Source: Variovorax paradoxus
GTDB lineage: Bacteria > Pseudomonadota > Gammaproteobacteria > Burkholderiales > Burkholderiaceae_C
Direction of reading: 5' to 3'
Length of the DNA stretch: 64,000 nt
NCBI RefSeq assembly: GCF_009498455.1
Contig: NZ_CP045644.1
Coordinates: 3,351,001 to 3,415,000 of the forward strand
Position numbers and translations under genes: made by a program. The notes beneath the pieces were generated by a model, which was given only the letters and a program-made list of their open reading frames with translations, did no database searches and was not told the DNA's origin. This document shows positions 3,896-43,113 of the stretch, in pieces (position 1 is the first letter of the stretch; each line of letters starts with the position of its first letter).

Positions 3896-3919
3896 GTGTG
3901 GTTCCTCGGTTGGTTTGAA

Positions 3920-17552: not shown

Positions 17553-18602
17553 ATGAACGAACAGTCTCCCGCCGCCACGGCGCTTCAGAGGCCTTTGCAA
17601 GGCACTCGCATCGTCGAGTTCGAAGGCATCGGCCCGGGCCCGGTGGCCGGGCGCATCCTGGCTGCGCTGGGGGCCGAGGTCACCGTGATCGCACGTCCGC
17701 AGGCCGGCGCAGTGCAGCGCCTGGGAAGCACCACCGACAACCCGCTGCGCGCGCGCAAGCAGGTCGTCACGCTCGACCTGAAGACGCCCGAGGGCGTGGC
17801 GCAGGCGCTGGACCTCGTGGCCACGGCCGATGCGCTCATCGAAGGCAATCGCCCGGGCGTCATGGAGCGCCTCGGACTCGGCCCGTCGGTGTGCGCGGCG
17901 CGCAACCCGCGCCTGGTCTACGGCCGCATGACCGGCTGGGGCCAGGACGGCCCGCTGGCGCAGGCGGCCGGGCACGACCTCAACTACGTGGCGCTGACCG
18001 GCCTGCTGTCGCTGTCGGCGCAACCCGGCGCGACCCCGATGGTGCCGCCGACCATGGGCGACGCCAGCGGCGCGCTCGGCCTGGCCTTCGGCATGGTCTG
18101 CGCGCTGCTGGGTGCGCGCAGCACCGGGCAGGGTCGCGTGGTCGACGCGGCGATCCTCGACGTGGTCGCCATGCTGGGCACGCTGGTGCACTGGCTGCAT
18201 GCCAACAACAGCATCGGCGGCACGCAGCCCAGCGTGTTCCACGACTCGCCGTTCTACGACGTGTATGCCTGCAAGGACGGTGGCTTCGTCACCGTCGGCG
18301 CCATCGAGCCGCAGTTCTACGCCTTGCTGCTGGAGAAGCTCGGCATGGCCGACGTGGACCCACGTGAGCAGATGCAGCGCGAGAAATGGCCGGTGATGAA
18401 GCAGCGCTTTGCCGAGTGCTTTCGCGGCAAGACGCGCGACGAGTGGTGCGCATTGCTCGAGGGCACCGACGTGTGCTTCGCGCCGGTGCTGACGATTGCG
18501 GAGGCGGCGGTGCATCCGCATAACGTGGCGCGTCATCTGTTTCCGAAGACGGCCTCGGGGGCGATCGATACGCAGGTGGTGCCGCGCTTCGCGGCGTTGT
18601 AA
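17553..18602 (+). CDS. CaiB/BaiF family protein, alpha-methylacyl-CoA racemase-like
   Basis: A 349-residue class III CoA-transferase-fold protein. Its length and motifs match alpha-methylacyl-CoA racemases: EFEGIGPGPVAGRILAALGA at the N-terminus, a histidine in AAGHDLNYVALTG, and an aspartate in PPTMGDASGALG, the two acid/base positions of that enzyme. It probably epimerises a 2-methyl branch during beta-oxidation. The ATG at 17553 has GAGAAAGG upstream. The last 60 bases contain the direct-repeat copy that reappears at 29053, so the gene's 3' end is the insertion point of the accessory island. The C-terminus reads FPKTASGAIDTQVVPRFAAL. Confidence 0.88.
   Translation: MNEQSPAATALQRPLQGTRIVEFEGIGPGPVAGRILAALGAEVTVIARPQAGAVQRLGSTTDNPLRARKQVVTLDLKTPEGVAQALDLVATADALIEGNRPGVMERLGLGPSVCAARNPRLVYGRMTGWGQDGPLAQAAGHDLNYVALTGLLSLSAQPGATPMVPPTMGDASGALGLAFGMVCALLGARSTGQGRVVDAAILDVVAMLGTLVHWLHANNSIGGTQPSVFHDSPFYDVYACKDGGFVTVGAIEPQFYALLLEKLGMADVDPREQMQREKWPVMKQRFAECFRGKTRDEWCALLEGTDVCFAPVLTIAEAAVHPHNVARHLFPKTASGAIDTQVVPRFAAL
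18552..18584 (+). repeat. Left copy of island-flanking imperfect direct repeat
   Basis: These 33 bases inside the 3' end of the racemase-like gene match 29053-29085 at 31 of 33 positions by eye, in the same orientation. Both encode the peptide pattern FP--ASGA-DTQ-VP. The two copies bracket about 10.5 kb of lower-GC sequence with transposase relics, so they look like attachment-site copies or a duplicated gene end created at insertion. Confidence 0.7.
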
Positions 18603-18714
18603 AAGGAGGGGGCGCCTGCGCGCGCCTCAGGCTTCTGTGTGACGGCTTTAGACTGGTCAGAGTCATTCGCTACCGACAGGCTAAGCGACCGCTGCAATCA
18701 TCAGCGGCCGTTCG

Positions 18715-18789
18715 TTAGCGACCGCCTGGCCACTGCAGCATCTCGGCCACACCGTGCGCCTGATGGCACCAAGGTTCGTCATTCCTTAC
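18715..18789 (+). pseudogene. IS110-family transposase remnant
   Basis: A short stretch in the gap between the racemase-like gene and the PIN gene translates to ATAWPLQHLGHTVRLMAPRF and continues VIPY. This matches the conserved LQ-LGHTVRLMAP-FV-PY segment of the N-terminal catalytic domain of IS110/IS1111 transposases. The rest of the gene is missing, so it is a scar of a former insertion. The remaining bases of the 386-bp gap (18603-18988) hold nothing else I recognise. Confidence 0.6.
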
Positions 18790-18988
18790 CTCGCATTGAG
18801 GTGTTGGTCACCGCTGCGCCCCTGCCCGAACTAAGGCTTGGCCTGACCGGATGTCACAGTATGGGCGCTCCAGCCGGCCCACTGCCTAGCACTTTGCAGC
18901 CGGCCGCCGGTGCCGACCTTGGCAATCGCAGGAAGTCGACGCAGGTGGCCGCCACCTACAATCTAGGACAGTTTCCAGCAGGATGGCT

Positions 18989-20050
18989 ATGGCAGACGAC
19001 GGGCAACTTTTTGTCTTGTGCGACACCAATGTGGGCGCGCGCGATGCCCACCTTTTTCGCAAGAAGGGTGGGCCGCTTCTCATCGACATGCTCCGCGCCA
19101 AGAAGGCAAAGCTCTTGGTGCCCGATATCCTGCGCATCGAGTACATCAAGCAGTTCACCATCGCTGGCGACGAAGCTTTGCAGAAGATGGGGAAAGAGGT
19201 CGATAGGTTGAAAACGCTTTGCGGATTCGACCTATTCGGGTTGCTGCCAAAGTCGCAGTTTGGAGATGCTCAGGCCCGTGAGATATTGGATCAGCTTGAG
19301 GACGTCATCCATGTCGTGTCCATGACGGATGCACTCAAGCTCGCCGCGTCCGACCGCTCCATGGAGGGTAGGCGGCCGACGTCGAAGTCCGACCATGGTT
19401 ACAAGGATTGCCTCATCTGGGAGAGCATGCTGACGCTGCCCCCGGGTTCCGAAGTGATGTTTGTGACTCGCGATGAGGTTGGCTTCTTCGAAAATGGTGT
19501 GCTCGCCCCCAGCCTTGCCAAGGAGGCCGTGGCCAAGGGGCTGAAGCTGACTGCGTTCAGAACTACCGAGGCGAATGGCGTGTCGCCAGTCGTCGATGCA
19601 CTGAAGGCTCGATTTGCGGACCTGGCTTCCATGCGCACTGCTGACGTGCTGATGGGAGACCATCCCATAGTCCAGGCGTACATGAGAAATGAGCGCGCCG
19701 CACCAGTTCTGCCGGTGCCGGCTGCCGTGGTGATGCCGCAGCCGGAGGTCCAGCCCGGCGAACTGGAGGCTTTGCTGACAGCTCATACGAGGCACCTGAC
19801 CCTTCTGGACATCAAGGCCCTTGGGTTCGTCGGATTTTTGGACCGGGCAGGTAAGCAGCAAGCCATCGACCTGCTCGTGCAGTCTGGCGCCACCGTAGAC
19901 GCGGCGCGCAACGCGCTGGAACGCTTGGCGTTGGCCGACCTGATACGGGACACCGGGCACAACTACTTGGCCGTCAAGGGTGAGCTGCTGGAGAAGGCTG
20001 TGCAGCAGGCTGAGGCTGAAATGATTGAGCTCACGGGCTTCGGAGGCTGA
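18989..20050 (+). CDS. PIN-like domain ribonuclease (DUF4935-like)
   Basis: A 353-residue protein whose first two thirds look like a PIN nuclease. The expected acidic residues are in order: Asp12 in LFVLCDTNVG, Glu51 in PDILRIEYIK, Asp140 in HGYKDCLIWE and Asp162 in FVTRDEVGFF. PIN domains cleave RNA with bound divalent metal. The last 90 residues (LTLLDIKALGFVG, VDAARNALERLALADLIRD) look like a small helical or winged-helix module. AGGA lies 5 bases before the ATG at 18989; an ATG at 18983 is less well placed. The next gene begins 1-4 bases after the stop, so the two form an operon. There is no antitoxin-sized neighbour, so it is not a standard VapBC toxin. Confidence 0.75.
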   Translation: MADDGQLFVLCDTNVGARDAHLFRKKGGPLLIDMLRAKKAKLLVPDILRIEYIKQFTIAGDEALQKMGKEVDRLKTLCGFDLFGLLPKSQFGDAQAREILDQLEDVIHVVSMTDALKLAASDRSMEGRRPTSKSDHGYKDCLIWESMLTLPPGSEVMFVTRDEVGFFENGVLAPSLAKEAVAKGLKLTAFRTTEANGVSPVVDALKARFADLASMRTADVLMGDHPIVQAYMRNERAAPVLPVPAAVVMPQPEVQPGELEALLTAHTRHLTLLDIKALGFVGFLDRAGKQQAIDLLVQSGATVDAARNALERLALADLIRDTGHNYLAVKGELLEKAVQQAEAEMIELTGFGG

Positions 20051-20051
20051 A

Positions 20052-22484
20052 GTGGTGGAGTCCTCTACCCGCATCAAAGTCCTTGAGCGCCTGGCTCGAT
20101 CGACTACCCCTGCTGCCGATGAGGCGATCAAGCGCGCATGCGAGCAGGCAATTGCCAGCCTCGTAAACGGCGTCGACTACGAAGCCCTTGAGTTCAGCCT
20201 TGATGTGCTGCTCACGGTGGGATTTCGGCACAGCAAGGAAGTCGTAGTTGCCGCGGACGGTTTCCTGCGCACGGTTGAGAGCCGGGCGTTGGTGCATTCA
20301 GATGAGCATGGGGAAAAGTTGGAGGCGCTATCCCAGTATCGCAGCGCCCACAGGTTGATGACCAAAGCCATCGACTTGCTCAACGCCTTGCGATACCTGG
20401 AGACACCAACTGTTGTGGACAGCCTGCTGTGGGCATCGAGGCATGATGAAGAATCGGTGCGCAAGGCTGCGTTCTCAGACCTGACGGGCCTGGCCAAGTA
20501 CAACATCTCTGTGTACTTCGGCGACGGGGCAGCCAAAGGTATCGGCTCAGGGCCTCAATTTCTAGTCATTGAGGCCCTGGAGAACAAGGGTGACGACTAC
20601 CTGAGACAACACTTGCGTGGCGTGCTGACGCTCTTAGAGGGCCTTCTGTCGACATCCATGGAATCGACGAAGTGGTCGTCTACCGGCGTGACGTTGTCTC
20701 AAGCAGTAGCTCCTGCTCACAAGGGTGTGGTCGAGATCCGCACACGAAGCATTGCTCTGGTGAAGAAACTCTACCGGCTCGTTGAAAGCAAGTCGCAGAA
20801 GCTATCTGTCATCAGAGCGATGAATACAGCAGCTCGAGGTGATGGCAGGGGGGCTGTCGACAAAGATTTTGCGGAGATGATTTCCGTGAACGCTCAGGAG
20901 GTCCTGTGGTTCTTTGGCGATGTCGCCAAAGAGGAAGACGATCTGCAGATCATCCAGAAGGTCGAGTATGACAGCTACTGGATTCACTTCCACACTGCAT
21001 CGGTGGAGGTGAAGGCGACTGCGCTTGAGGTTAAGGCAATCATCGACGCTAACGCAGAGTACAGCGTCTACAAGACGCTCGTTGGCTTCGAAGGGATATT
21101 CGGCGATTGGACGAAGGAGCGTAGAGACGAGTCCTTCACGCTTGGTTCTCAGGAATCTAGAGCTAAACAGTCCAAGGTCCTGGCCGCACAGGTTCCAGCC
21201 GATGGCTTTGATGTGTGGCGCGCTCGAATCTTGAGGTTCTCTCAGACCGAGTCCAACGACCTGGCCACTTTTCCCGTCTTCTATGAGTTCCTGGCCGAGG
21301 TTGCGGCGTCGTACCCCGACTTCGGCCTTGAACTGCTCACCGAGCACGCCGAAGCACTGTCTCGGTTCCTCATACCTTTGCTTCGGGGTGTCTGGGACGG
21401 AGACAAGAAGGCGCAGCTCCTCCCTCTGATGACAAGGTGGATAGACGAGGCTTCGGAGAAGGAGACTTCGTTCCTGAGCGCCTGCGCAAAGGTCTTCCTG
21501 TCGACCAAGGATGTCGACTTCGACATCCTCGAGAGGATTCTCGAAAAGGCGACTCGCCTTCGTGACGTTTTCGTTATCCGCCAAGTTGCAACGGTGGCCG
21601 TCGGTAGGTCCGATTCGGGAGCCTGGAAGGCGGACCTGAAGAAGCTCTTCCTGCGTGCCTTGCCGCGCTTGACCGAGCTTGGGGATGCGGGCTGGGTTCG
21701 AGAGATTTGGTACAGGAAAGAGGCGACGGAGATGGTCGGCGAATTCTCTCCTGATGAGCGCCGTGAGGTGCTGAAGAACCTGCGCCTCTTGCCACAGATC
21801 GACTACCAGGCCGAGGACGTGCTGGCAGCTATTGCCGAGCGAGAGCCCAGTTTGGTTGTTGAGTACCTGTGCGACCGACTCTATGAACCCAATGCAGCTG
21901 TCGCGGCAGTTGCTGAAAAGGCGGGCTACGACTACGAAGAGCTGCCGTACCAGTTCCACACACTACAGGACAGCCTTTCCAGGGACCCGAAGGCGGTTGT
22001 CGCCGAGGTCCTGGGCCGCTACTCAGCCGACGATTCGCTCTTTGAGTTCAGGGGTGCAAAGCTGCTGCAGGCCATCTTTCCTCAGTTCTCTGAGGGCTTC
22101 CAGGTAGAACTTGTTCGCCTCATTCGAGATGGCGGCGAAAAGGGCCTTGAATTTGTTGCTGGTGTGCTGCGATCCTACGGCGGAGAGGCTTTCATCCAGC
22201 CTGTTGCCAAGGAACTCATCAAGCGGTTGCCCCGGAGCAGCCCGCTCATCAACGAGGTAAAGATTGCGCTGATGAGCACAGGTGTGGTGTCAGGCGAGTA
22301 CGGGATGGCGGAGGCCTACGACAGGAAGCGTAGCGAGGTCCTTGACTGGCTTCAGGACCCCGATGAACGCGTCCGTACTTTTGCTGCCAAGTACGCTAAC
22401 GAGCTCCAGGCTATGAGTGAGAGTGAGCGTCGTCGCGCGGACGAGTCCATTGCCGTTCGGAAGTTTGAGTACGGCGAAGAGTAG
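20052..22484 (+). CDS. Large alpha-helical (HEAT/ARM-like) protein of unknown function, partner of PIN nuclease
   Basis: An approximately 810-residue protein I cannot place in a named family. It is rich in short amphipathic helix pairs resembling HEAT repeats, for example VVDSLLWASRHDEESVRKAAF early on, PNAAVAAVAEKAGY in the middle, and DPDERVRTFAAKYANELQ at the end. It has no signal peptide, membrane segment or catalytic motif that I can see. A GGAGG ribosome site at 20042-20046 precedes GTG codons at 20052 and 20055; the first is reported. It follows the PIN gene with essentially no gap, so the two are very likely co-expressed and may form a sensor-effector pair. Codon use is less GC-rich than the flanking core genes. 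Confidence 0.7.
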   Translation: MVESSTRIKVLERLARSTTPAADEAIKRACEQAIASLVNGVDYEALEFSLDVLLTVGFRHSKEVVVAADGFLRTVESRALVHSDEHGEKLEALSQYRSAHRLMTKAIDLLNALRYLETPTVVDSLLWASRHDEESVRKAAFSDLTGLAKYNISVYFGDGAAKGIGSGPQFLVIEALENKGDDYLRQHLRGVLTLLEGLLSTSMESTKWSSTGVTLSQAVAPAHKGVVEIRTRSIALVKKLYRLVESKSQKLSVIRAMNTAARGDGRGAVDKDFAEMISVNAQEVLWFFGDVAKEEDDLQIIQKVEYDSYWIHFHTASVEVKATALEVKAIIDANAEYSVYKTLVGFEGIFGDWTKERRDESFTLGSQESRAKQSKVLAAQVPADGFDVWRARILRFSQTESNDLATFPVFYEFLAEVAASYPDFGLELLTEHAEALSRFLIPLLRGVWDGDKKAQLLPLMTRWIDEASEKETSFLSACAKVFLSTKDVDFDILERILEKATRLRDVFVIRQVATVAVGRSDSGAWKADLKKLFLRALPRLTELGDAGWVREIWYRKEATEMVGEFSPDERREVLKNLRLLPQIDYQAEDVLAAIAEREPSLVVEYLCDRLYEPNAAVAAVAEKAGYDYEELPYQFHTLQDSLSRDPKAVVAEVLGRYSADDSLFEFRGAKLLQAIFPQFSEGFQVELVRLIRDGGEKGLEFVAGVLRSYGGEAFIQPVAKELIKRLPRSSPLINEVKIALMSTGVVSGEYGMAEAYDRKRSEVLDWLQDPDERVRTFAAKYANELQAMSESERRRADESIAVRKFEYGEE

Positions 22485-22764
22485 GAGTGGCGAGCGGCCA
22501 CCAAGCCACTTGGCCGGCTGCTTCACTCTCGACACCGGTCATCGCTGCCAGCACAGAGACAGGCATGCCAATGACGGCTTCATGCCCCGGAGCGTGGATC
22601 CGGCAACCTGCAGCGGAATACCGCAACCGCTGCAAACCTGCCCCTTGGCAAATTCTGCCCGAGACTGGTTGCGGTCTCTCGAGTTTGGTTCGCGAACGAC
22701 CGCTGGTGCTGGAAGCGGCCAGTCACCCCTTCAACGATGAATGACTGCTGCGAGGATGCCCCGG
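22485..22764. other. Convergent intergenic region without recognised gene
   Basis: The 280 bases between the convergent solenoid and PD-(D/E)XK genes contain only short unsupported reading frames. I see no clear terminator hairpin. Confidence 0.5.
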
Positions 22765-24963
22765 CTACACCGTCGGTGATACCGGATAAGTCGGCATCGT
22801 ACTTAGCTGCTGCTCTGCGGTGGCCTGGGCACGGATCCTGCGCAGTTGCTCAAATTCGAACCCCGGATTGCGAGTCGAGAAGCTGATGCGGCTGACGGAT
22901 CGCAGATTCTCGACCAACTCCTCGCCCGTGGCGGAATGCTGTAGCAGCTCTTCGATGAAGCCAAGGTTGTGAAAGAAGATATTGTCGTAGGGGTGTTCGC
23001 GGTACGGATTGTGGGCAACCGCGACCAGTTTTGACAGAACCGACCGTAGGCCAACGAGGTCCCGATTGCCTGCTCCAACACGACGCGTTTGACTGGAGCT
23101 TGATGCATTCGTCAGGGCAATCTCCACACCCGCTAGTGCCTCAAGTCCGCGCCGCATCGTCGTCGTGTCGTGGAGACCACCGAAATCCGCGATGGTAAGG
23201 ACCACTTTGAGCACTTCGCGCCCGCGCAGCTCAAGGACACCGTTGGGAAGCGCTATCGAGTCTTCCTGAAGGAGGCGTAGTTCACATTTCGAGAGCTGCG
23301 TCGCACCATGCACCAGTGTCTCAGCGATGTCGATGAAAAAGGTAGCTGTGTCATTCGCCCTTGACTCGGTGCGCAAGGCTTTGGCCTTCATCTCGAACAG
23401 CACGATGTGGCGGTCTGTCTCGATAGCAAGGTCTACGTCGCCGGTGACTTGGCGGCCGCGCTTCATAACACCCCGCAGGCACAGAATGCCTCGCTGCGCG
23501 AGGCGCTCCGCCATGTGCAGTTCGAACTTCCTGCCGACTTCGGTGTTGAAGTTGGACCTGCCGTTGGCCAGTAGGCGAAAGGCCCGCTGGTAGAACGCGG
23601 CCCCCAGGAAAGCCGCCGGAGGAATCCACAGTCTGCTGCCGTCGAGCTGGACTAGCGCCGCTTCCAAGGCCTCGGCGTCGCTGCCATGGCCGGGCGAGTA
23701 GTAGTTCCGACAAGGTCGGTCCAGGGAAAAGGTATGTACCAGCATCTCCGCCGCGTGTCGGTCGAACAGCCGCGCGGCGAGTCGTGCTTCGACCTCACTG
23801 CGTTGCACAACGGTGCCTTTGCAGGGGTGTTCTGCCATGTCTTGCAGCACCATTAACAAGGCCAGGATATGGTCCGGTCTCCAAACTGGCCCGCCAGGGA
23901 GCTGGTCTGCTACCGGCACGACCACGTCGCGAAGCAATGCCTCGACCACTGGCTGGTGTATCTGAGGCAACGCGAAAACTTGGTCATAGAGTACGACCCG
24001 TCCAAGCGAACGGATGACGTCGGCGGGATAGTGGTCGCCCAGAGGTTCGAAAGGTGACCACGGCTCCGCGTCGACCAGGGCGCCCAAGTGGCAAGACGCG
24101 GTGAGCGCGTTATCGAGCAGCTGGTTTCGCCCCGTGCGCGCAGGCACCACGTGAAGGTGTTGGAGCGCTATGCGATACAGATAGCCAAGCGGGATCGACG
24201 GCTCGATCTTCATGCTCGTCATTGAGAGCTCGGGGTGGAGGTTGACATGCTTCCGCACAGGATCGTAGCGGCGCTCGAAGGTTTGCTGCAGAAACTCCAT
24301 CGCCAGGGAGCCGAGGCGACCAAAGGGCACACGCACGGTCTGGGCGATGCTTCGGCTCCCCTGGGCGCCCTGCGTCCCTATCTCCGCTCCGCGAACTTGG
24401 ATTGGGATGCCCTTTTTCGCGAAAAACCTAGCGGCGTTCGCTCTGCTGACGTGCCGTGGGGACCAGTGCGGTGACGTCTGCGTTTCATAGGCCCGGATAT
24501 ACCGAATCGCCTCGATCCAAGGCGCCTGCCCCTCTTCCATCGGGACCAACGCATCTACGAAGTGGTGGGTGTCTCGCAGCGCATCGAAGAGCAGCGGTGC
24601 AGCCAAGCGCAGCGGAGCCGTATCCTCAGTGCGCAGTACTTCCGCGAAGACTAGCTGCGTCAGCAAGTCACGCCACAACACTGACGCTCTCGGCCAGCCC
24701 AGGAGGCTGTCGTCGTCTGGCCCAGTTGGCATCATGTGCGGCACCAAGATCGATCGAACTATCCCAAAAAGCCATTGGTAGCGGTGGTGGGGCACTGCCG
24801 CTAGCGGGTACTGCCCGGCCTCTCGATAGAGCTCGGCGAAACGATCTGCCAATGGCAGTTCAACAGTTAGATTTCTCGGCAGGGTCACAGCATTGCCCAG
24901 GTCGGCTAAGTACACAGGGATGCTACCTGCGCTGGTAGCACCGCCTGCCTGTTTTGTTACCAA
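22765..24963 (-). CDS. Large protein with C-terminal PD-(D/E)XK nuclease-like domain
   Basis: A 732-residue protein without a family name that I recognise. The C-terminal third contains a restriction-endonuclease-type core. It has a glutamate in a helix (EVGRKFELHMAERL, about residue 480), an aspartate in TGDVDLAIETD (about 509-511), and the E-x-K triplet in IVLFEMKAKA (about 524-526). The N-terminal 450 residues are helical and unrecognised and may recognise DNA or a partner. The frame opens with TTG at 24963; internal GTG codons near residues 17 and 25 are alternative starts and no start has a convincing ribosome site. It is convergent with the PIN/solenoid operon and flanked by an IS66 relic, so a defence or mobile-element role is plausible but unproven. 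Confidence 0.7.
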   Translation of the reverse strand: MVTKQAGGATSAGSIPVYLADLGNAVTLPRNLTVELPLADRFAELYREAGQYPLAAVPHHRYQWLFGIVRSILVPHMMPTGPDDDSLLGWPRASVLWRDLLTQLVFAEVLRTEDTAPLRLAAPLLFDALRDTHHFVDALVPMEEGQAPWIEAIRYIRAYETQTSPHWSPRHVSRANAARFFAKKGIPIQVRGAEIGTQGAQGSRSIAQTVRVPFGRLGSLAMEFLQQTFERRYDPVRKHVNLHPELSMTSMKIEPSIPLGYLYRIALQHLHVVPARTGRNQLLDNALTASCHLGALVDAEPWSPFEPLGDHYPADVIRSLGRVVLYDQVFALPQIHQPVVEALLRDVVVPVADQLPGGPVWRPDHILALLMVLQDMAEHPCKGTVVQRSEVEARLAARLFDRHAAEMLVHTFSLDRPCRNYYSPGHGSDAEALEAALVQLDGSRLWIPPAAFLGAAFYQRAFRLLANGRSNFNTEVGRKFELHMAERLAQRGILCLRGVMKRGRQVTGDVDLAIETDRHIVLFEMKAKALRTESRANDTATFFIDIAETLVHGATQLSKCELRLLQEDSIALPNGVLELRGREVLKVVLTIADFGGLHDTTTMRRGLEALAGVEIALTNASSSSQTRRVGAGNRDLVGLRSVLSKLVAVAHNPYREHPYDNIFFHNLGFIEELLQHSATGEELVENLRSVSRISFSTRNPGFEFEQLRRIRAQATAEQQLSTMPTYPVSPTV

Positions 24964-25016
24964 GGATTAGCAAAGGAGCTCTCCACGCGCTGCTTGGCCA
25001 ACCAACCACAGGCTGG

Positions 25017-25380
25017 CTAAAGCGAACACCTCCGTAAGCGCGCAGTGAACTCGTCTTGACGACGGCGTTGGCTATGTAGCCGTGGTCGGCAGCCAGCGAT
25101 GCGGCAGCAACTCTGCAATGCGGCTGGCCGGGTGGCTACGGGCGTCTCGTCCGCACGCAACACTCGGCTGCGAAGCATCTCGCTCCTGAGCGCGTCCACC
25201 AGCAGCTGCAGGTGCACGCCGCACTGGCCCACCCAGGCGGCCAGCGTCGAGCGCGGGATCGCAAGGCCGGCCCGGCCGAAGATGGCTTTCTGCCGGTACA
25301 GCGGCAGGTGATTCAGGTACTTGGCCACGAGCATCCTTTGCTCCTAACGTCGATTCAAGATGGGTTCACGGGACGCTTAC
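25017..25380 (-). pseudogene. Internally deleted IS66-family element remnant (tnpC fragment plus terminal repeat)
   Basis: The minus-strand frame from 25334 reads VAKYLNHLPLYRQ, FGRAGLAIPRSTLAAWVG and SRVLRADETPV, a central segment of the IS66 TnpC transposase, and then loses similarity. Just outside it, the minus strand from 25380 reads GTAAGCGTCCCGTGAACCC, which has the GTAAGC start typical of IS66 terminal inverted repeats. The tnpA and tnpB genes and most of tnpC are missing, so this is a dead deletion derivative. The stretch 25381-25480 shows nothing recognisable. Confidence 0.75.
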
Positions 25381-25480
25381 ACACCTCCGGGGTCCAGGCC
25401 ACTTTGATGCAACGAGTTAGGGTGCACCTGCACTCAGGCACTGGGCACAGGCCGGCGCTTCCGTCTGCCTCTTTGGGCAA

Positions 25481-26074
25481 CTAGGGCCGCGCGAGTTGGG
25501 CACCGACTAGAGGCTCGGCAGCCGTGATCCGAATGCCAGACCACAGTGACAAGGCGGCCATGGGCCAGCAGAAGAGTGCAGTCGTGAAGAATAGGGACGG
25601 CGATGGCGTGATCCCTAACAGGCTCAGCGGAAAGCTGAAGAGTGGCGCCGCGCCGAGCGCATAGAACAGCCCATATGCAGCCAAGTATGCGACCTTGCGT
25701 GTGACCCTCACCCCGTGGCTTGCGTATTTGCGTTTGAACGATACCTGTGAGCCCACCGCCGTCGCGGTATGCTGAAGGTACGGCAGCCCCATCACGTAAA
25801 ATCTCAGCGCGCGTGCGGACTCTGGAAGCGTCAGCAGGTATTCGACCGTTTGGGCGCTCAGACGGTTGTCGCCTGCCAACGCCTGATAGCCCTTCTGTAG
25901 AAGGAATGGATGCATCTGGGGCGTTTTTCGGATGTCATCCAAGAATTCGCGAGCGAACTTGTATTCGTCCCTGAACCTGCTGCGGCGTCCGGCGCCCACC
26001 TCTACAACGATTTTCCACAGTGCGAACGCTCCCGCGATCAGCGAGAAGAGCTTCAGAAACGTTTCTAGGGTCAT
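25481..26074 (-). CDS. Small multi-pass membrane protein of unknown function
   Basis: A 197-residue protein with three likely membrane segments. One is at the extreme N-terminus (ETFLKLFSLIAGAFALW) and a hairpin of two is near the C-terminus (about residues 130-155 and 160-180, including LFFTTALFCWPMAALSLW). Between them is a charged cytoplasmic-looking region of about 100 residues. The ATG at 26074 is chosen because it begins directly before the first membrane segment; the frame extends to 26206 but those residues look non-coding. No ribosome site is strong. I do not recognise a family. Its island location suggests an accessory role. Confidence 0.55.
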   Translation of the reverse strand: MTLETFLKLFSLIAGAFALWKIVVEVGAGRRSRFRDEYKFAREFLDDIRKTPQMHPFLLQKGYQALAGDNRLSAQTVEYLLTLPESARALRFYVMGLPYLQHTATAVGSQVSFKRKYASHGVRVTRKVAYLAAYGLFYALGAAPLFSFPLSLLGITPSPSLFFTTALFCWPMAALSLWSGIRITAAEPLVGAQLARP

Positions 26075-26361
26075 TCCGCCATTGTGCGGTCCATCGATTC
26101 GTCGAAGCGTGCCACGAAAGTTTGCACGCTCGCGGCGGCATTGATTCACCCCGTCGAGTCCTGCAGGGCCCTCGCGTTCGCTGCATAACCAGCCCAAGAT
26201 TAACACTGCGTCCCCGCCGGGTCAGGATTCCATGGAAATCAACAGCTTGCTCAATTTCTTCATGGTGTGGTTTCCCGGCGAGCACGAATAGATTCGAGCT
26301 GTGCACTCGACTCGAAGTCTCGGCAAGGTTTTTCTGTAACGCTGAGCCGCGTCGCCCTTGT

Positions 26362-27435
26362 TTAAACCAGACCGAGGTCCCCAAGAATCTCCTCAACGTC
26401 GGCGGCGTCTAGTAAGTAAGAGTCTTTCGCTACGTTTGACACCAATGCCCGATTCTCTGGGGTGTCGACGCTCGCAACAAAGAACTCAAGAGAGCAGCCA
26501 GCGATTGCCTGCCGCACACTCTCGGCAGTCTCGAATACTTCACAGCGGCCATTCAATTCACCGATGAGGCAGGTCTCGGTATCCAATGGAAGCAGCACGC
26601 CAACCATGGGCACGGTGGCATCATTGAGTGGGGCCACTCGGCGTTCACCCGCCACTGCATGCACTGCTGCTGAATCGCCCAAGATGATGTTGCCCCCCGG
26701 GTACTTGCGAATACGGAACGTGAGCTTTGCAAACGCCTCCTCTCTCTCCGAGGAGGTAGCTACGCGCTTCAGTGCCTTCAGATGCCCCGACTTCATCGCA
26801 CCCTTGAGTAGGCCTTGTGTGAGTTTCCCTTCCGTTTGCAGCGCCCTTGCTTGCTCGTCCGCGTTTGCTTTGAAGTACGCAGGTAGTTCTGCCCTGGCCC
26901 GTTGAAGCATTGCTGGCGTTAACGCTTGATCCAGGTGACGACTGAGTTCCTTGAGAGGAAATTGATCACCAGCCGCCACTGTCAAAATTTGTTTGAGGAT
27001 GCGGGTCAGATTGGCGTCATCTTGAATGTGCGCGGTGAGTACGGCGGCTAACTTGGTTGGGTCTGACATTGCGTTGTATACGCCGTTCACCAAGTCGCCA
27101 GTCATCCTTTCGAAGTTTTCGCGAACATGCCGCGTGCGAACTAGCATGTGGGCGACGAGCTTGGCCGCCTGCTGGGAATCCACATTCGTCCCGTTAGCAG
27201 CTGCACGCAGGTCCGTCACGAATGCCGCCAACGCGCCTTCGTCGTCAGTGATCGCGTCGTCGACGGACCTGTCGCCATCATGCGTGTAGAACTGCCCTTC
27301 GAGCGCAATGTTCTGGATGCTGGTGTTGAATGCCGGCCTGTCTTTGCGGAAGACCCACGCGTTACTTGCGTTCTCGGGGCTACCAAATCCGCGTTGAAGG
27401 AACTGGGGAATGAAGTGATGTCGCTTACCCGCCAT
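26362..27435 (-). CDS. DUF4238 domain-containing protein
   Basis: A 357-residue protein that opens with KRHHFIPQFLQRGF, the hallmark of the DUF4238 family. The biochemical function of this family is not known to me; members are scattered in bacteria and often lie in accessory regions. The conserved paired histidines could be catalytic or metal-binding, which is speculation. AGGAG lies about 10 bases before the ATG at 27435. It shares strand with the downstream membrane protein gene (287-bp gap) and the upstream unrecognised gene (306-bp gap), so the three are not tightly coupled. Confidence 0.75.
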   Translation of the reverse strand: MAGKRHHFIPQFLQRGFGSPENASNAWVFRKDRPAFNTSIQNIALEGQFYTHDGDRSVDDAITDDEGALAAFVTDLRAAANGTNVDSQQAAKLVAHMLVRTRHVRENFERMTGDLVNGVYNAMSDPTKLAAVLTAHIQDDANLTRILKQILTVAAGDQFPLKELSRHLDQALTPAMLQRARAELPAYFKANADEQARALQTEGKLTQGLLKGAMKSGHLKALKRVATSSEREEAFAKLTFRIRKYPGGNIILGDSAAVHAVAGERRVAPLNDATVPMVGVLLPLDTETCLIGELNGRCEVFETAESVRQAIAGCSLEFFVASVDTPENRALVSNVAKDSYLLDAADVEEILGDLGLV

Positions 27436-27741
27436 ATCACGTGCTCCTGCTTGGCGTAGGTCTTCTTGTTCTTGACTAACTCCACCGTTTTAGGCTTGCT
27501 TCGCAAGCTTGACACGCGACGCTCGATCATGCACAGCGGCGCTTCTGCTTTCGCTGCCGGGCGGCCCGTGCCCATGAGTGCCCGCCGCGTTCTACTCTAT
27601 GAAGTCAGGCGATACCTCAGCGAGTAGTTGCGATGTGCTCGGCTCAAAGAAAGGAGGCTCGCGCCTTTGATCTTAAAGCACTGCATCATGGAAACGCGTA
27701 CATGCGAAATGGCGCGCTGCACGCCAGTCCGCGTGTACGAA
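27436..27741. other. Intergenic region without recognised gene
   Basis: These 306 bases separate two minus-strand island genes and presumably contain the promoter of the DUF4238 gene. A short perfect hairpin (GCTTGC-TTC-GCAAGC) occurs near 27493-27507, without a T-run, so I do not call it a terminator. Confidence 0.4.
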
Positions 27742-28875
27742 TCAGGGCCTCGGCCGGCGGCGGGGATCGGGAAGGAGTCCGGGCAACACTTCGCCCCGTC
27801 GCGTCAATTGCAGGTATGGAATCAGCGCATGCACCTGGCTTACCGGTCTACCAACGTTCCCGATCCGCGCATTCACCGACATGATGTGGTCCGGAGCCTC
27901 ACCGGGCCGTATGCGAGGAAGCTGCGGATAGCGGATCGAAATGCGCCCTTCCGTCGCTGAGATTCGAGCTGTGGCTTGGTCATACTCGTCGGGGAAGAAC
28001 TCTACCCGGATCTCGGATGCCCTTCTGAGAACCCGTTCTAGCGGGGGCAACGGGACCCGGGCGGGAGAGCGCTGCTTGAATAGAGCGCGGTCCAGTTTGT
28101 CTAGGAAGAGGTAGAGCATGCCCGCGATGCGAAGCAAGAAGTGGTTGTACGAGAACGCGGTATAGACAGTCCCCCGATAGCGCGCGTGCACTTGGGGGTC
28201 TGGCCCTCGCTGATCCTCTGGGCCTGTCATAGTTCGGACGTAGAAGCCAGTCACCAACACGCCGTTGTGGTTGGTAATAGAAATCGGTGCCAGCCGCGCC
28301 GCCCGATGCTTGAGCGCGTTGGCAGGGATACGAACCTGCTCGTGGTGGGCTTTTGTCGACGACAAGAATGCTTGGTGAACGTGCGGATTTCTGGTCTTCA
28401 GAAAGTCATGCAGGGTCATCTTTTCGCTGTCGGCGTCGGGTGCTGAAAAGCACTTGATGATGACGTGCAGTTGTTCGTACAGCTCGTTGACGGTCCGGAT
28501 CAGTTGCTCCGTTTCGGCGAGCACAGGAGCCTCGAACCCGTCGGCGGGTCCAGTTGTAACAGCATCGGCGACCTGAACAAACAAGTTTGCAATGTCGTCG
28601 AGTTCTTGATGGAGAAGATCCGCCGGGTGTTCGATGAATGGTCGATGAGCTTCGTGGAACAGCAACATTGGTGGCGCGTTGACCAAGTTTGCGTACAGCG
28701 CATTACCGCGCTGGGGAGAATAAATTTGTTCCATCGGTTGTGGGGGGGCCGAAGCGAGCCAAGTGAAGTTGCGGAGGCCTGTTGGAGTTGGCGATTGTCC
28801 TCCGAGCAGGAGCCCCGCAGCCACCGCTGCCTCGTTCACCGTTTCTCTAGAGGTCGAAGAGGATTGGGAAGACAC
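27742..28875 (-). CDS. Hypothetical protein of the accessory island
   Basis: A 377-residue frame with consistent coding character and no family I recognise. It contains a histidine-rich central part (NPHVHQAFLSSTKAHHEQ) and a helical segment FLLRIAGMLYLFLDKLDRALF near residue 260, and ends in a basic proline-arginine tail. The apparent start is GTG at 28875 with no clear ribosome site, so the true start may be further in. GC content is lower than in the core genes. It is the last island gene before the right repeat at 29053. Confidence 0.5.
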   Translation of the reverse strand: MSSQSSSTSRETVNEAAVAAGLLLGGQSPTPTGLRNFTWLASAPPQPMEQIYSPQRGNALYANLVNAPPMLLFHEAHRPFIEHPADLLHQELDDIANLFVQVADAVTTGPADGFEAPVLAETEQLIRTVNELYEQLHVIIKCFSAPDADSEKMTLHDFLKTRNPHVHQAFLSSTKAHHEQVRIPANALKHRAARLAPISITNHNGVLVTGFYVRTMTGPEDQRGPDPQVHARYRGTVYTAFSYNHFLLRIAGMLYLFLDKLDRALFKQRSPARVPLPPLERVLRRASEIRVEFFPDEYDQATARISATEGRISIRYPQLPRIRPGEAPDHIMSVNARIGNVGRPVSQVHALIPYLQLTRRGEVLPGLLPDPRRRPRP

Positions 28876-29052
28876 TCAGGCCATCTGTTTAACGTCCTGC
28901 TCTGACGACAGACTAGGGGGCGACAGTCCGCAAAGCGCCAGGATGCAGCCCTCCGTATGGACTTCCAGGAAGACTGCTACCGCTGCGTAGCGGACGATCG
29001 ATTACGTTGCTCAGCCGTTGGATGTATCGCGGCGCGCCTTTTCCCCCAAGAC

Positions 29053-29085
29053 GCCTCGGGGGCGGTCGATACGCAGATGGTGCCG
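29053..29085 (+). repeat. Right copy of island-flanking imperfect direct repeat
   Basis: This is the second copy of the 33-base repeat (see 18552-18584). In frame it encodes FPQDASGAVDTQMVP, a copy of the C-terminus of the racemase-like CaiB protein, but no matching upstream gene body is present. The porin gene begins on the other side 53 bases away, so this marks the right edge of the island. Confidence 0.7.
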
Positions 29086-33960: not shown

Positions 33961-34182
33961 GTGGTTGTGACAGGGAGAAGATGGGGCGCATGCGCCGCGT
34001 TGATGGCGGCATTGCTGATGGGCGCATGCTCCACCACGCCGAGCACGCCGAGCACGCCGAGCACGCCGAGCACGCCGAGCACGCACATAGCACGGGGCAT
34101 GCTTCAGACTTGGTGCGACCGATTGGGGTATTCGATCAGGCTCGGCAACGGCATGCGTATCTGGACCACCTTATCTAGGTAG
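33961..34182 (+). CDS. Short lipoprotein-like frame, probably a truncated gene
   Basis: A 73-residue frame starting at GTG with AAAGGA 8 bases upstream. It has an N-terminal hydrophobic stretch and a lipobox LMGAC, then Thr-Pro-Ser repeats encoded by five 9-bp units, and then about 30 unrelated residues ending at the stop. A lipoprotein signal with a Ser/Thr/Pro linker normally precedes a larger domain, so this looks like the 5' end of a gene cut by insertion. The 3' half of an alginate-lyase-like gene on the same strand at 44.9 kb is a possible other half, but the middle would be lost. Confidence 0.5.
   Translation: MVVTGRRWGACAALMAALLMGACSTTPSTPSTPSTPSTPSTHIARGMLQTWCDRLGYSIRLGNGMRIWTTLSR
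34036..34080 (+). repeat. Five tandem 9-bp repeats (ACGCCGAGC)
   Basis: Five exact copies of ACGCCGAGC encode Thr-Pro-Ser units of the lipoprotein linker. Copy number of such units commonly varies between strains by slippage. Confidence 0.9.
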
Positions 34183-34488
34183 CTGCCGGCGTAGGGCACG
34201 CCCAGTTTGTCCAGCGCGCTGCTGACATACGCATGAATCCCATGCCAAGACGTAGCCGACATGGGGAAGCGCGCCCACCGCGTTGATATCGCTTGGCCGC
34301 GTGGGCCGCTGCGATTGCCGGAGCTCCGCTGTCGGGGCATTTCCCCAATGTGGTGGCCCCCCGCATCACCGCAGAGGACGCCGAGCGTTGTTGCTCGCGT
34401 GCAGTCGCCACCGAAGACCTGGTTAATGTCGGACCACAAGGCGCCTCAGACTAGGCGCTCGTTTGGTCCGCCCACTCAGGAACGCGCG
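34183..34488. other. Intergenic region with unrecognised short frames
   Basis: About 306 bases between the truncated lipoprotein and the tannase gene. A minus-strand frame from 34262 to 34104 (HGIHAYVSSALDKLGVPYAG and on) has protein-like composition but no family I recognise and no ribosome site. It may be a gene fragment. Confidence 0.3.
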
Positions 34489-36165
34489 CTACGGAGCAGT
34501 GCAGGTATAGCTAGCATCGCTGTTGACATCGCCACCAGGGACGTAGCGCGGGTACTGCGGATACTGGCAAACGGGGATGGATTTCGCCGCGCCGGTGCTG
34601 GTCTTGCTGTTGAAGGTGAGCTGCGTCGGTGCCGCGCCGGCCTCCACCCACTTCACAATCGCATCATCCCATCGAACTTGAGTCAGAGCTTGCGACCCTC
34701 CATGACCGGTGCCAGGAACGACGAAGTACCGGCTGGAGGTCGACGGGTCCGCAAGCCCCATGCTTTTGGCGATGGAGTACACGTTGTTGATGATTCGAGT
34801 GTGCTCGTTGACCGACAAGAGCCCATCGGCGCCATCGTGGTAAGTGAGGAACTTCTTTCCGCTCGCAATGAATTTTGCGAGGGCAATCTTGTCGACGTCC
34901 GAGCCCACGAGTTGAAGGCCGGCGGTTACTGGGCCGTAGTCGACATTGACATCAAAGGTCGCCTGTTTTGCCGCGGTCAGCCACGATGCGTCGTTCGTTG
35001 CCATAGCGACGTACCCACCCCCGAGACCACCGAACGATGCGGGATTTGCATTTGCCCAGCCATAGGGAGAGTAAATCGTGTTGCCAGTTGCATCCGCCCA
35101 GCCTCCCGCGAAGAGCTTTTGAACTGTCGGAAGCTGCGCCGGGGTCAAGCAGACCGCTGGGTCAGTACTTGCCAAAGGCTGTCCGCAGACCTGAGTGGAT
35201 GGGTCAAAGGTGCACCTCGAAGGATTCGAGATCACCCCATCGGCCAAGTTATCTGCCGCGTCACAGGAGGCCACTGCTGCTTTGTATACGGCGCTCCACT
35301 GAGCGCCGCTTGGCATTACAGGGGTTCCAGCAAGACCTGCCATGCTCGTCCATGCGACCGTCTGCCCAGGCATGCTGAAACCGTAGCAACCAGATACGGC
35401 CCCATCGAATTCTTCAGGCCAACGTTGAACTGCGATCGCGGCATTGCGACCTCCGTTCGAGCATCCAACGAAGTACCGGTACTTCGCATCCTGCTTGAAA
35501 AACTCCCGAATCACCGCTTTGGCGAAGTACAACGTACTGCCGAGTGAGGCATACGAGTAATCAGCCATGGACTGCTTTCCAGCTTCTGTGCCGTCAAAAA
35601 AGACCGCCGGCGCAGCCTGTCCAGCAACGCCAGCGCGATTGCCACCGTTGGACGACGCGTAAACAGCAGCCTGCTTCGTGATAGCGTACGTGACTTCAGT
35701 GATTGCTCCCGAATTGTCCTTGGTGAAGGCTGAGCGAATTCGACCGTCAAACCCTCCGCCTCCTTGCTGATAGTAACGTCCGCTCCAGTTATCTGGGACC
35801 ACGACCTCTATATCAAGATAGGGGGCGCGGGTCGCCAGTACCTGGCACATGCCGGTGGTGCCGAGGGAGGCATCACCCTCGATGCGGTTGGCCGCAGTCA
35901 CGGTTGCCGAAGCGAATGTCTTTCCGACTATCGAAGTGCAGGTCGCCTTGAGAGCATCAACGCTCGGCAGGGCATTCGGATCTGTGCCGGTGTCCCCACC
36001 GCTGCCATTGCTGCCACTGACGCCGCTATCACCTACGGGAAATACGAAGGGCAGGCTGGCACCACCGTTGTTTCCGCCGCCACAGGCCGCCAGTACGAGA
36101 GTGAAAGACAGTGCGACAGCCGTGCACATCCTTTTTGAAAGAAGGTTGGGACGCGAATCAATCAT
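34489..36165 (-). CDS. Tannase/feruloyl esterase family lipoprotein
   Basis: A 558-residue secreted hydrolase. The signal sequence ends in a lipobox (LVLAAC) followed by a Gly/Ser-rich linker. The alpha/beta-hydrolase nucleophile is in FVGCSNGGRNA, with the adjacent cysteine typical of the family. The acid is in YHDGADGLLSVNEH and the histidine in VPGTGHGGSQ. Members cleave ester bonds of gallate or hydroxycinnamate esters. It would release an aromatic acid outside or at the outer membrane for uptake with the Bug protein downstream in the cluster and hydroxylation by the FAD enzyme. The exact ester is unknown. Confidence 0.9.
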   Translation of the reverse strand: MIDSRPNLLSKRMCTAVALSFTLVLAACGGGNNGGASLPFVFPVGDSGVSGSNGSGGDTGTDPNALPSVDALKATCTSIVGKTFASATVTAANRIEGDASLGTTGMCQVLATRAPYLDIEVVVPDNWSGRYYQQGGGGFDGRIRSAFTKDNSGAITEVTYAITKQAAVYASSNGGNRAGVAGQAAPAVFFDGTEAGKQSMADYSYASLGSTLYFAKAVIREFFKQDAKYRYFVGCSNGGRNAAIAVQRWPEEFDGAVSGCYGFSMPGQTVAWTSMAGLAGTPVMPSGAQWSAVYKAAVASCDAADNLADGVISNPSRCTFDPSTQVCGQPLASTDPAVCLTPAQLPTVQKLFAGGWADATGNTIYSPYGWANANPASFGGLGGGYVAMATNDASWLTAAKQATFDVNVDYGPVTAGLQLVGSDVDKIALAKFIASGKKFLTYHDGADGLLSVNEHTRIINNVYSIAKSMGLADPSTSSRYFVVPGTGHGGSQALTQVRWDDAIVKWVEAGAAPTQLTFNSKTSTGAAKSIPVCQYPQYPRYVPGGDVNSDASYTCTAP

Positions 36166-36237
36166 TTTTTGTCTCCTGAAGTTAACGAAAGTGACGACCT
36201 TCCTCGTCGTCGGGTTGCAGACCTTGTGACCGGTCTC

Positions 36238-37194
36238 TTAATCGACCCTGATGTTGTTGGCCTTGATGAGTCGACCCCAGCGCTCGCGCTCATCCTTCAC
36301 ATACTTCGCCATGTCGGTGGGCGTACCTGGCAGTCCCTCGACGCCAAGCCCAAGAAAGCGCTCTTTCACAGGTTTAGAGTTCAAGGCTTCGACCAGTGCC
36401 TTGTTGAGCTTTGCCACGGTTTCCTGCGGGGTTCCGCTGGGCACGGAAAGTCCTTGCCATGCGTAGGCTTCGAAGTCGGAAAGTCCCTGCTCGGCCAGTG
36501 TCGGAACGTCCGGCAGCGTGGCGATGCGCTTCGAGCTCGCGACACCGATGGCCTTGACCTTGCCGGCCAGCACGAACTGATTGCCGCTCGCCGTGTCGAC
36601 CATCATGAAGGGGACCTGACCGCCCAGGATGTCCTGCATCGCCGGCGCCGCGCCGCGGTAGGCAACGTGCGTCATTGCAACGCCGGTTTTCTCGCGCAGC
36701 AATTCGGCCGCCAGGTGATGAGGACTGCCGGCGCCGGCCGATGCGTAGTTGATGCCGCCGGGTTGGGCCTTGGCCCATGCGACGAACTCCTTGAAGTTCT
36801 TCGCGGGTACTTGGGGCCCCACCACCAGCACGAGCGGAAAGCGCGCCAGCATGCCGACCGGCGTGAGGTCCTGCTCCGCGTTGTAGCTGAGTTTGGAAAA
36901 GAGGAACGGATTGGCGGCGAGGGTGGCGAAGTCAGCCGTCAGCAAGATGTTGCCGTAGTCCTTGGACCGGGCCGCATAGTCGGCAGCAATATTGGTCGCT
37001 GCGCCCGGCTTGTTGTTGATCACGATCGGCCGCGCGAGGATTTTTCCCATCGTCTCGGCTGTGGCTCGCGCCACGGAGTCCGAGCCTCCGCCAGCCGCAT
37101 AGCCAACCACCCACTCGATGGGCTTGCTGTCTTGTGCGAGAGCCAGGGGCGCGGCTGCCGCGAGCGCTAGGCTTGTCAGGATCGATCGAATCAT
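36238..37194 (-). CDS. Bug/TctC-family periplasmic solute-binding protein
   Basis: A 318-residue Bug protein with a signal peptide ending ALAQD and the family blocks IEWVVGYAAGGGSDSVAR, NNKPGAATNIAADYAA and AYRGAAPAMQDILGGQVPFM. GGAGA lies 7 bases before the ATG at 37194. It is in line with tannase, DUF2783, FAD-hydroxylase and metallo-hydrolase genes, so the ligand is probably an aromatic acid released by the esterase. No TctA/B genes are near. Confidence 0.92.
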   Translation of the reverse strand: MIRSILTSLALAAAAPLALAQDSKPIEWVVGYAAGGGSDSVARATAETMGKILARPIVINNKPGAATNIAADYAARSKDYGNILLTADFATLAANPFLFSKLSYNAEQDLTPVGMLARFPLVLVVGPQVPAKNFKEFVAWAKAQPGGINYASAGAGSPHHLAAELLREKTGVAMTHVAYRGAAPAMQDILGGQVPFMMVDTASGNQFVLAGKVKAIGVASSKRIATLPDVPTLAEQGLSDFEAYAWQGLSVPSGTPQETVAKLNKALVEALNSKPVKERFLGLGVEGLPGTPTDMAKYVKDERERWGRLIKANNIRVD

Positions 37195-37216
37195 GGAATT
37201 TCTCCGTTGGTTGTAT

Positions 37217-37414
37217 TTAAGAAGATCCGGCGGGACGGGCTGCTGCGAATGCTTGACGCAGAACGCTGAGTGACCCGATGTGATTGGCGAGAAGCAGCAG
37301 CAGGCGCGCATTGAATGCATGGCTTTCCTGCGTCGAAAGGCCTTGATGCGCCTCGATCAACGCTTCGTAGCAATCATCTGGTGCATCAAGGTGCGGTGAA
37401 GTGATCAGTTCCAT
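37217..37414 (-). CDS. DUF2783 domain-containing small protein
   Basis: A 65-residue protein matching the DUF2783 pattern: DDCYEALIEAHQGLS, then LNARLLLLLANHIG-type text (here NARLLLLLANHIGSLSVL). The function is unknown. These small proteins commonly neighbour class A flavin hydroxylases and may be accessory subunits, which is inference. The ATG at 37414 lies 10 bases after the hydroxylase stop. The TTG at 37438, which would overlap the hydroxylase, is less likely. Confidence 0.75.
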   Translation of the reverse strand: MELITSPHLDAPDDCYEALIEAHQGLSTQESHAFNARLLLLLANHIGSLSVLRQAFAAARPAGSS

Positions 37415-37424
37415 GGTCTCGTCT

Positions 37425-39125: not shown

Positions 39126-39219
39126 CTGTGGCTCCTGGTGAAGCGACCCTGAGAGTCGCCGGTGCTCGGTCAGCGCTGCGATCTGTGAAGGCGTGAACCG
39201 ATGCGATCGAGTGGGGCGT

Positions 39220-41456: not shown

Positions 41457-41460
41457 CCTG

Positions 41461-42276: not shown

Positions 42277-42441
42277 GGCTGAAAGTGTAAGGGACGTCCC
42301 ATACCAGGCTCATCAAGTAATGACTGGCACGTTTCACGTGTGCATTGTTGTTTGCACGCCCGGTGGCGGTATTCCTAAGTCGTCAATAAACCACGCCCCT
42401 TGCGCGTGATGTCGGAACCGACGTGCGCGGGTTAGGGTTGG

Positions 42442-43065: not shown

Positions 43066-43113
43066 CGAAAGCCCGGCAGGCGAGGCATTGACTCGGGTGT
43101 CGGGTTTCGCCCT

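What the first reader, a model, noticed from the sequence alone, without database searches (positions are those of the whole stretch)
18989..22484. PIN-nuclease plus giant alpha-solenoid gene pair, candidate undescribed system
A PIN ribonuclease-like gene with the four expected acidic residues is followed with no gap by an approximately 810-residue HEAT-like protein that I cannot assign to a family. There is no antitoxin-sized partner, so it is not VapBC. The pair lies in an insertion island next to another nuclease. A solenoid sensor coupled to an RNA-cutting effector would fit an abortive-type defence, which is inference.
Basis: partly seen in the sequence, partly recalled or inferred. Interest (0 to 1): 0.75.

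Follow-up and report, generated by a model that had tools for sequence, protein, structure and literature searches.

The report
PIN nuclease–solenoid pair with swappable effectors
Two adjacent bacterial genes, a likely RNA-cutting enzyme and a giant spring-shaped protein, travel together on mobile DNA, and relatives of the spring protein carry a different enzyme instead, which points to an uncharacterised anti-virus alarm with exchangeable weapons.

Summary
A PF16289 PIN gene (18989-20050) ends one base before an 810-residue alpha-solenoid gene (GTG 20052-22484). AlphaFold gives a PIN fold plus C-terminal winged helix for the first and a HEAT/ARM-like superhelix for the second. Both are under purifying selection.

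The pair is a real unit. Of 18 loci where I could read the solenoid's context, 11 have the PIN gene directly upstream (proteobacteria, a cyanobacterial plasmid, viral-collection contigs), 6 have the solenoid fused behind a RelA/SpoT domain, and 1 has a different 268-residue protein upstream; none is an orphan. Distances of the two proteins correlate (r 0.94, 51 pairs). RelA and PIN forms are the two main branches of the solenoid tree.

The family is rare and patchy (4 of 398 other family genomes). Members occur on plasmids, in phage-like contigs and near CBASS, Dsr2-like and type I restriction genes; several have no clear defence neighbour. No NCBIfam, PADLOC or PHROGs model matches the solenoid; my paper searches found no description.

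Best reading: a two-protein, non-VapBC abortive defence; the solenoid senses infection and holds, then releases, an RNA-targeting effector. Architecture is shown; defence, trigger and RNA cutting are inferred. The neighbouring 'other nuclease' is unconfirmed.

The parts
18989..20050 (+). PIN-domain protein (353 aa from the ATG at 18989; 355 aa from 18983): PIN_12 ribonuclease-like domain (about residues 1-210), variable linker (about 230-255), C-terminal winged helix (about 258-330); proposed effector
20052..22484 (+). 810-aa alpha-solenoid (HEAT/ARM-like superhelix), GTG start one base after the PIN stop; proposed sensor/regulator
   Evidence: 220 homologues; model pLDDT 88.4; HEAT/ARM proteins as best structural matches; dN/dS 0.09-0.13
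18543..18584 (+). left copy of a 42-bp direct repeat, inside the 3' end of a CoA-transferase family III gene; left edge of the island
   Evidence: 38 of 42 identical to 29045-29085; PF02515 E 4.5e-76 for the gene
29045..29085 (+). right copy of the direct repeat; right edge of the low-GC island
22765..24963 (-).

Best explanation
A two-gene, mobile anti-invader (probably anti-phage) system. The 810-residue solenoid is the regulatory and sensing subunit. The PIN protein is the effector, tied to the solenoid through its conserved C-terminal winged helix. In resting cells the solenoid keeps the PIN nuclease off. When the solenoid binds an infection-linked molecule, the PIN domain is released or activated, cuts RNA (most likely tRNA, as VapC-type PIN toxins do) and stops translation, so the infected cell fails to produce phage. 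In the sister branch the same solenoid is fused to a RelA/SpoT nucleotide pyrophosphokinase domain, which would also block translation or signal through nucleotides. Shown: domains, fold class, gene coupling, correlated divergence, effector exchange, mobile and partly defence-linked contexts. Inferred: enzymatic activity, winged-helix contact, direction of control, trigger, abortive outcome.
For: (1) Coupling: of 12 stand-alone solenoids with readable context, 11 follow a PIN gene directly and 1 follows another protein. Pfam alone, without my own profile, puts PIN_12 above its cut-off in 10 of these 11 upstream proteins; L017 is just below (30.1 bits against 32). In one sample of 399 family genomes the 4 with a strong PIN match (E <= 2.5e-41) are exactly the 4 with a stand-alone solenoid, and the fused-solenoid genome has no PIN match; the PIN profile contained rows from 3 of those 4, so what counts is the absence elsewhere. 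47 of 120 listed PIN clusters share an exact longest-contig length with one of 120 listed solenoid clusters; nine shifted controls gave 0-3. (2) Distance correlation 0.937 over 51 pairs, 0.932 over the 11 direct loci; 0 of 2000 permutations as high in each. (3) Effector exchange: 6 loci have an N-terminal RelA_SpoT domain fused to the solenoid (PF04607 E 8.1e-10 to 1.3e-15). Of 69 hits to a fused solenoid, 64 carry PF04607; the other 5 look like the same fusions with late starts. The 16 RelA-type rows are one side of a 100/100 branch. (4) Context: CBASS effector, cyclase, E1-E2, capH and capP genes (L017); Dsr2-like gene E 1.5e-125 (L013); type I R, M and S genes (L031); portal, terminase and HNH genes (L009) and tail genes (L010); integrases (L008, L012, L013); four plasmid records. 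(5) Patchy: 4 of 398 other family genomes, 0 of 368 others in the class sample, 1 of 397 others in the phylum sample. (6) Purifying selection.
Against: No experiment was done, and no PADLOC model matches either window protein. Defence context was judged on the loci at hand, without a random-locus control, and is absent or unclear in L001, L015, L016, L018 and L020; genes around the window's own pair are not recognised defence genes. No match in 50,697 phage records. 73 of 120 listed PIN clusters have no contig-length match, which capped lists and short contigs leave uninterpretable. The correlation test mixes relatedness with coupling. Solenoid conservation is fairly even, with no long hypervariable sensor region, unlike the variable sensor of CapRel (PMC9712102, passage). 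The resting-state inhibition by the solenoid is assumed; it could instead be needed for activity.
Confidence: 0.62

Rival explanations
1. An outsized toxin-antitoxin (addiction) module. The PIN protein is a toxin and the solenoid a stable antitoxin that maintains the plasmid, prophage or island, with no phage sensing.
For: PIN fold shared with VapC toxins; plasmid, viral-contig and island locations; strict pairing; RelA/SpoT-type domains are also known toxin domains (PMC9712102 passages, PMC11559606 start of abstract).
Against: Partner is 810 aa and second in the operon, with no DNA-binding antitoxin domain found by Pfam. The winged helix sits on the PIN protein instead. The same solenoid is fused to another enzyme. 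Some loci lie near CBASS, Dsr2-like and restriction genes.
Confidence: 0.18
2. A stress- or translation-surveillance module of the host. The solenoid scaffolds RNA or ribosome-bound factors and the PIN protein trims or cleaves them. It is accessory but not antiviral.
For: HEAT/ARM scaffolds and PIN nucleases occur together in eukaryotic RNA decay (recalled). Both alternative enzymes plausibly act on translation. Fairly even conservation of the solenoid.
Against: Rare, patchy presence, a low-GC island with flanking repeat, plasmids, phage-like contigs and, at some loci, defence neighbours are not what a housekeeping function shows.
Confidence: 0.1
3. A weapon between mobile elements: the pair is cargo of prophages, plasmids and islands that excludes competing elements such as incoming plasmids rather than lytic phages.
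For: Location in contigs with phage genes (L009, L010), on plasmids (L011-L014) and on an integrase-bearing contig (L008).
Against: The same evidence fits anti-phage defence; neighbours at two loci include CBASS and Dsr2-like genes.
Confidence: 0.1

Closest known systems
DSR2 (Sir2 NADase with a HEAT-repeat sensing region)
   Same: Toxic enzyme controlled by a long helical/HEAT region that binds phage proteins (PMC11263360, passages seen). A Dsr2-like gene lies three genes downstream of one fused solenoid (L013).
   Different: DSR2 is one protein with a Sir2 NADase. Here the enzyme is a separate PIN protein, or a RelA/SpoT domain in the sister branch. No PADLOC model, Dsr2 included, matches the window solenoid at E <= 1.
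CapRel / fused toxSAS
   Same: Nucleotide-pyrophosphokinase toxin domain held by its own sensing domain, released by a phage protein, blocking translation by tRNA pyrophosphorylation (PMC9712102, passages). The sister branch here also fuses a RelA_SpoT domain to a regulatory region.
   Different: The regulatory region here is an approximately 800-aa solenoid, not a small pseudo-zinc-finger domain. The window form uses a PIN protein in trans.
DS-5 and DS-3 of DefensePredictor
   Same: PIN-based defence without a classical antitoxin. In DS-5 both genes are needed and deleting the second causes no unrestrained toxicity (PMC13092281, passages).
   Different: DS-5's partner carries DUF5830 and an AcrIF4-like domain; DS-3 is a single protein with a split PIN domain. 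The passages I saw describe no solenoid.
VapBC toxin-antitoxin systems
   Different: No small antitoxin gene; the PIN protein is 353 aa with its own winged helix; the partner is an 810-aa solenoid.
PADLOC candidate PDC-S33
   Same: Its model matches the RelA/SpoT part of two solenoid fusions (E 1.2e-12 and 1.8e-9).
   Different: 349-position model without the solenoid; no match to the window proteins.

Membership tests
PF16289 PIN_12 family | Score above the curated Pfam cut-off | tested here: met
   46 bits against 32
PIN ribonucleases | PIN fold and conserved acidic active site | tested here: met
PIN ribonucleases | RNase activity | not testable with these tools
   needs biochemistry
VapBC | Small antitoxin gene next to the PIN toxin | tested here: not met
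   downstream partner is 810 aa; upstream, no same-strand ORF of 30 aa or more lies wholly within 18603-18982
HEAT repeat proteins (Pfam) | Pfam HEAT family score above cut-off | tested here: not met
   best 16.9 bits against 23.5; some homologues carry a precomputed PF02985
HEAT/ARM alpha-solenoids (fold) | Superhelix of stacked helix pairs | tested here: met
DSR2 | Sir2 domain and match to the Dsr2 model | tested here: not met
   no Sir2 domain in Pfam, no PADLOC match at E <= 1
DSR2 | Fold match of the solenoid to DSR2's helical region | tested here: inconclusive
   not among the listed rows, which does not exclude it
CapRel / toxSAS | RelA/SpoT-type synthetase domain | tested here: not met
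   absent from the window pair; present in 6 related loci
DS-5 (DefensePredictor) | Partner with DUF5830 | tested here: not met
   no DUF5830 in the Pfam scan of the solenoid at E <= 1
Abortive defence system | Protects the population while the infected cell stops growing | not testable with these tools
   needs phage challenge

The most novel reading that the evidence does not exclude
The solenoid is a general infection sensor that has been wired to unrelated enzymes that both stop translation: a PIN ribonuclease recruited in trans through a winged-helix adaptor, and a RelA/SpoT pyrophosphokinase recruited by fusion. At least one further partner sits next to a type I restriction operon. It would be one alarm with exchangeable weapons, found from proteobacteria to cyanobacteria.
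Probability: 0.4. Interest if true: 0.78.

Novelty: new variant of a known kind. Interest (0 to 1): 0.64.

Why it matters
If it works as proposed, a large, fairly evenly conserved solenoid has been paired with two chemically unrelated enzymes that may both target translation. That would allow a direct test of whether one sensor can serve different effectors, and it gives natural swaps (PIN in trans, RelA/SpoT in cis, a third partner by an R-M operon) for mapping the control surface. It also adds an unannotated family, known from hundreds of protein clusters, to the list of candidate immune systems; the libraries searched here miss it.

Tried and rejected
VapBC: rejected, no antitoxin-sized partner. 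DSR2, CapRel and DS-5 membership: rejected for the window pair (see Membership tests). Phage records (INPHARED): no solenoid match. Sequence relatives in the PDB: none significant for either protein (best E 0.13 and 0.038). DSR2 and other immune solenoids were not among the listed structural matches; this is not evidence of absence. Empty-site test: I fetched one same-genus region holding a copy of the CoA-transferase gene (88-89% identical); of the window only that gene and an unrelated stretch (2720-3896) matched it, the right flank did not, so the insertion site is not proven. The five fusion hits without a precomputed PF04607 (P0253, P0268, P0270, P0272, P0309) were looked at (of P0270 only the first 120 residues); all look like the same fusions with late starts. 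The match of the 268-aa partner's C-terminus to the PIN winged helix is weak (E 9.2e-5 for a search of one sequence, 8.8 bits) and I do not rest the case on it. For the correlation test I used 40 of the 47 contig-length pairs; of the 7 left out one duplicates L002, the others were dropped without a recorded criterion. My PIN profiles (A4, A6) contain rows taken from several of the tested loci, so the profile hits there are partly by construction; I therefore repeated the test with Pfam alone. Weak PIN matches without solenoid in two family genomes (G380 E 1.3e-14, G218 E 1.7e-7) I take for other PIN proteins. Paper searches found no description of this pair; they cover open-licence PubMed Central papers only, so this is not proof of novelty. 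I saw passages of PMC13092281, PMC7159879, PMC11263360 and PMC9712102 and only listings or abstract starts of the rest.
Full report
What is there. On the + strand a PIN gene (ATG 18983 or 18989, stop ending 20050) is followed after one base by an 810-residue gene (GTG 20052, end 22484). The PIN protein matches PF16289 PIN_12 (E 9.8e-12) and no PADLOC, NCBIfam or PHROGs family. The second protein has only sub-threshold Pfam HEAT hits and none in the other three libraries. The pair is the first part of a low-GC stretch (57-62% against 69-72% in neighbouring 2-kb windows) that begins at the 3' end of a CoA-transferase gene and ends at a second, 90%-identical 42-bp copy of that end (18543-18584 and 29045-29085). 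This looks like an insertion island. I could not show an empty site, and of the seven island ORFs scanned only an IS66 fragment (25017-25334) is a recombination gene.

The pair is a unit. A search of about 5.8 billion proteins gave 220 solenoid homologues (120 listed, 113 of them 805-824 aa) and 172 PIN homologues (120 listed); in both only the best-sharing 7,997 candidates were scored. In 11 of 18 a PIN gene is directly upstream; in 6 of 18 the solenoid is part of a RelA/SpoT fusion; in 1 of 18 another protein is upstream. Because my own PIN profile contains rows from several of these loci, I also used Pfam alone: PIN_12 is above cut-off in 10 of the 11 upstream proteins and just below in L017 (30.1 bits against 32). 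In one sample of 399 genomes of the same family, the four with a strong PIN match (E 2.5e-41 or better) are the same four that have a stand-alone solenoid; the genome with a fused solenoid has no PIN match, and two genomes have weak PIN matches without solenoid. Independently, 47 of 120 listed PIN clusters share an exact longest-contig length with a listed solenoid cluster, against 0-3 for nine shifted controls; for contigs of 9 kb or more it is 23 of 35. I used 40 of these 47 as pairs, with the 11 direct loci, in a distance test: r 0.937 over those 51 pairs and 0.932 over the 11; no permutation of 2000 reached either. This shows that they are inherited together; it does not separate binding from simple linkage. 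dN/dS is 0.08-0.14 for both genes, with dS saturated for two of three relatives.

Effector exchange. Of 69 proteins found with a fused solenoid as query, 64 carry PF04607; the other five look like late-start versions. In 59 of these 69 (those over 990 aa) I aligned the N-termini; synthetase motifs are kept in at least 95% (for example R43, K45, S49, K53, D71, R76, E151, Q153 in P0284 numbering); that these are catalytic is recalled from the family. The Rhizobium protein adds a C-terminal poly-gamma-glutamate hydrolase domain (E 8.6e-45). In a tree of 33 solenoids the 16 RelA-type rows form one side of a fully supported branch (100/100), with the PIN-type rows on the other. The solenoid with the third partner (L031) lies inside the PIN side, next to the cyanobacterial one (100/99), so there a PIN gene was probably replaced. 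That partner is 268 aa, overlaps the solenoid start, has no Pfam family, and its C-terminus only weakly resembles the PIN protein's winged helix.

Context. L017 (G232) has CBASS effector, cyclase, E1-E2, capH and capP genes and a TPR-repeat gene upstream. L013 lies near a Dsr2-like gene and an annotated caspase-family gene. L031 lies downstream of type I R, M and S genes. L002 follows a peptidase-UvrD helicase gene that matches GajB and reverse-transcriptase-associated helicase models over its helicase part. L009 lies beside portal, terminase and HNH genes and L010 near tail and methylase genes; L008, L012 and L013 have integrases. In L001, L015, L016, L018 and L020 I saw no clear defence neighbour, but not every neighbour was scanned. 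The window's own neighbours are without family or DUF4238. I had no random-locus control, so this is suggestive only. Presence is rare: 4 of 398 other family genomes, 0 of 368 others in a class sample, 1 of 397 others in a phylum sample, and 4 of 385 in the class of one fused-type genome, that genome included.

How it probably works. Two rules follow from the anatomy: the solenoid is the constant part, and the enzyme is the exchangeable part. Known systems with this logic sense a phage protein with a regulatory region and release a toxic enzyme: DSR2 with HEAT repeats (PMC11263360, passages) and CapRel with a pyrophosphokinase toxin domain (PMC9712102, passages). A PIN-based two-gene defence that is not a toxin-antitoxin pair is also known (DS-5, PMC13092281, passages). 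I therefore take the solenoid as sensor and switch, the PIN protein as RNA-cutting effector attached through its winged helix, and translation stop with abortive outcome as the result. The core of the winged helix (residues 301-325, mean entropy 1.15) is as conserved as the active-site block 126-150 (1.13). Shown: domains, coupling, exchange, mobility. Inferred: activity, RNA target, contact, direction of control, trigger, outcome. One point speaks against a rapidly evolving sensor: the solenoid is fairly evenly conserved, and its most variable stretch is short, near residues 612-628; it may sense something conserved.

Novelty. Neither window protein matches a PADLOC, NCBIfam or PHROGs family; eight paper searches found no description (open-licence papers only). 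I rate it a new variant of a known kind: sensor-effector defence with a new sensor and an effector exchange.

Noticed in passing
L031 6666-7472 (-): In one genome the solenoid is preceded not by PIN but by a 268-aa protein without Pfam family, in a cluster with type I R, M and S genes; its N-terminus weakly resembles the start of a type I restriction subunit (PADLOC E 0.00018).
   Followed up: partly
L013 6653-10585 (+): Rhizobium plasmid protein of 1310 aa combines RelA_SpoT, the solenoid and a C-terminal poly-gamma-glutamate hydrolase domain.
   Followed up: partly
L009 9460-10167 (+) and L008 12414-13130 (+): Directly downstream of two PIN-solenoid pairs lie a DUF4145 gene and a DUF5677 gene (E 1.8e-12 and 5.7e-14): possible optional third components.
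   Followed up: no
L020 9413-9880 (-): Upstream of one RelA-solenoid fusion, past a divergent methyltransferase gene, lies an HD_4-domain gene (E 2.4e-7); HD_4 includes alarmone hydrolases by recall, so it might be an antidote.
   Followed up: partly
window 18543-29085: Low-GC island between two imperfect 42-bp copies of a CoA-transferase gene end, holding besides the pair an IS66 fragment (25017-25334), a DUF4238 gene (26362-27435) and three ORFs without family (22765-24963, 25481-26206, 27742-28875).
   Followed up: partly
window 22765-24963 (-): 732-aa protein without family match; by eye it holds a D-(x)n-ExK stretch that could be a PD-(D/E)XK nuclease, not tested.
   Followed up: no
window 34000-44600: A second lower-GC stretch (about 59-63%) with a tannase, an FAD oxygenase, two IclR regulators, a TctC gene and a phage-type integrase (43361-44593).
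   Followed up: no
RelA-solenoid fusions, P0284 residues 150-156: The fusions read C-E-x-Q-x-Q-T where alarmone synthetases usually have E-x-Q-x-R-T (usual form recalled); the second Q is kept in at least 95% of 59 sequences.
   Followed up: no
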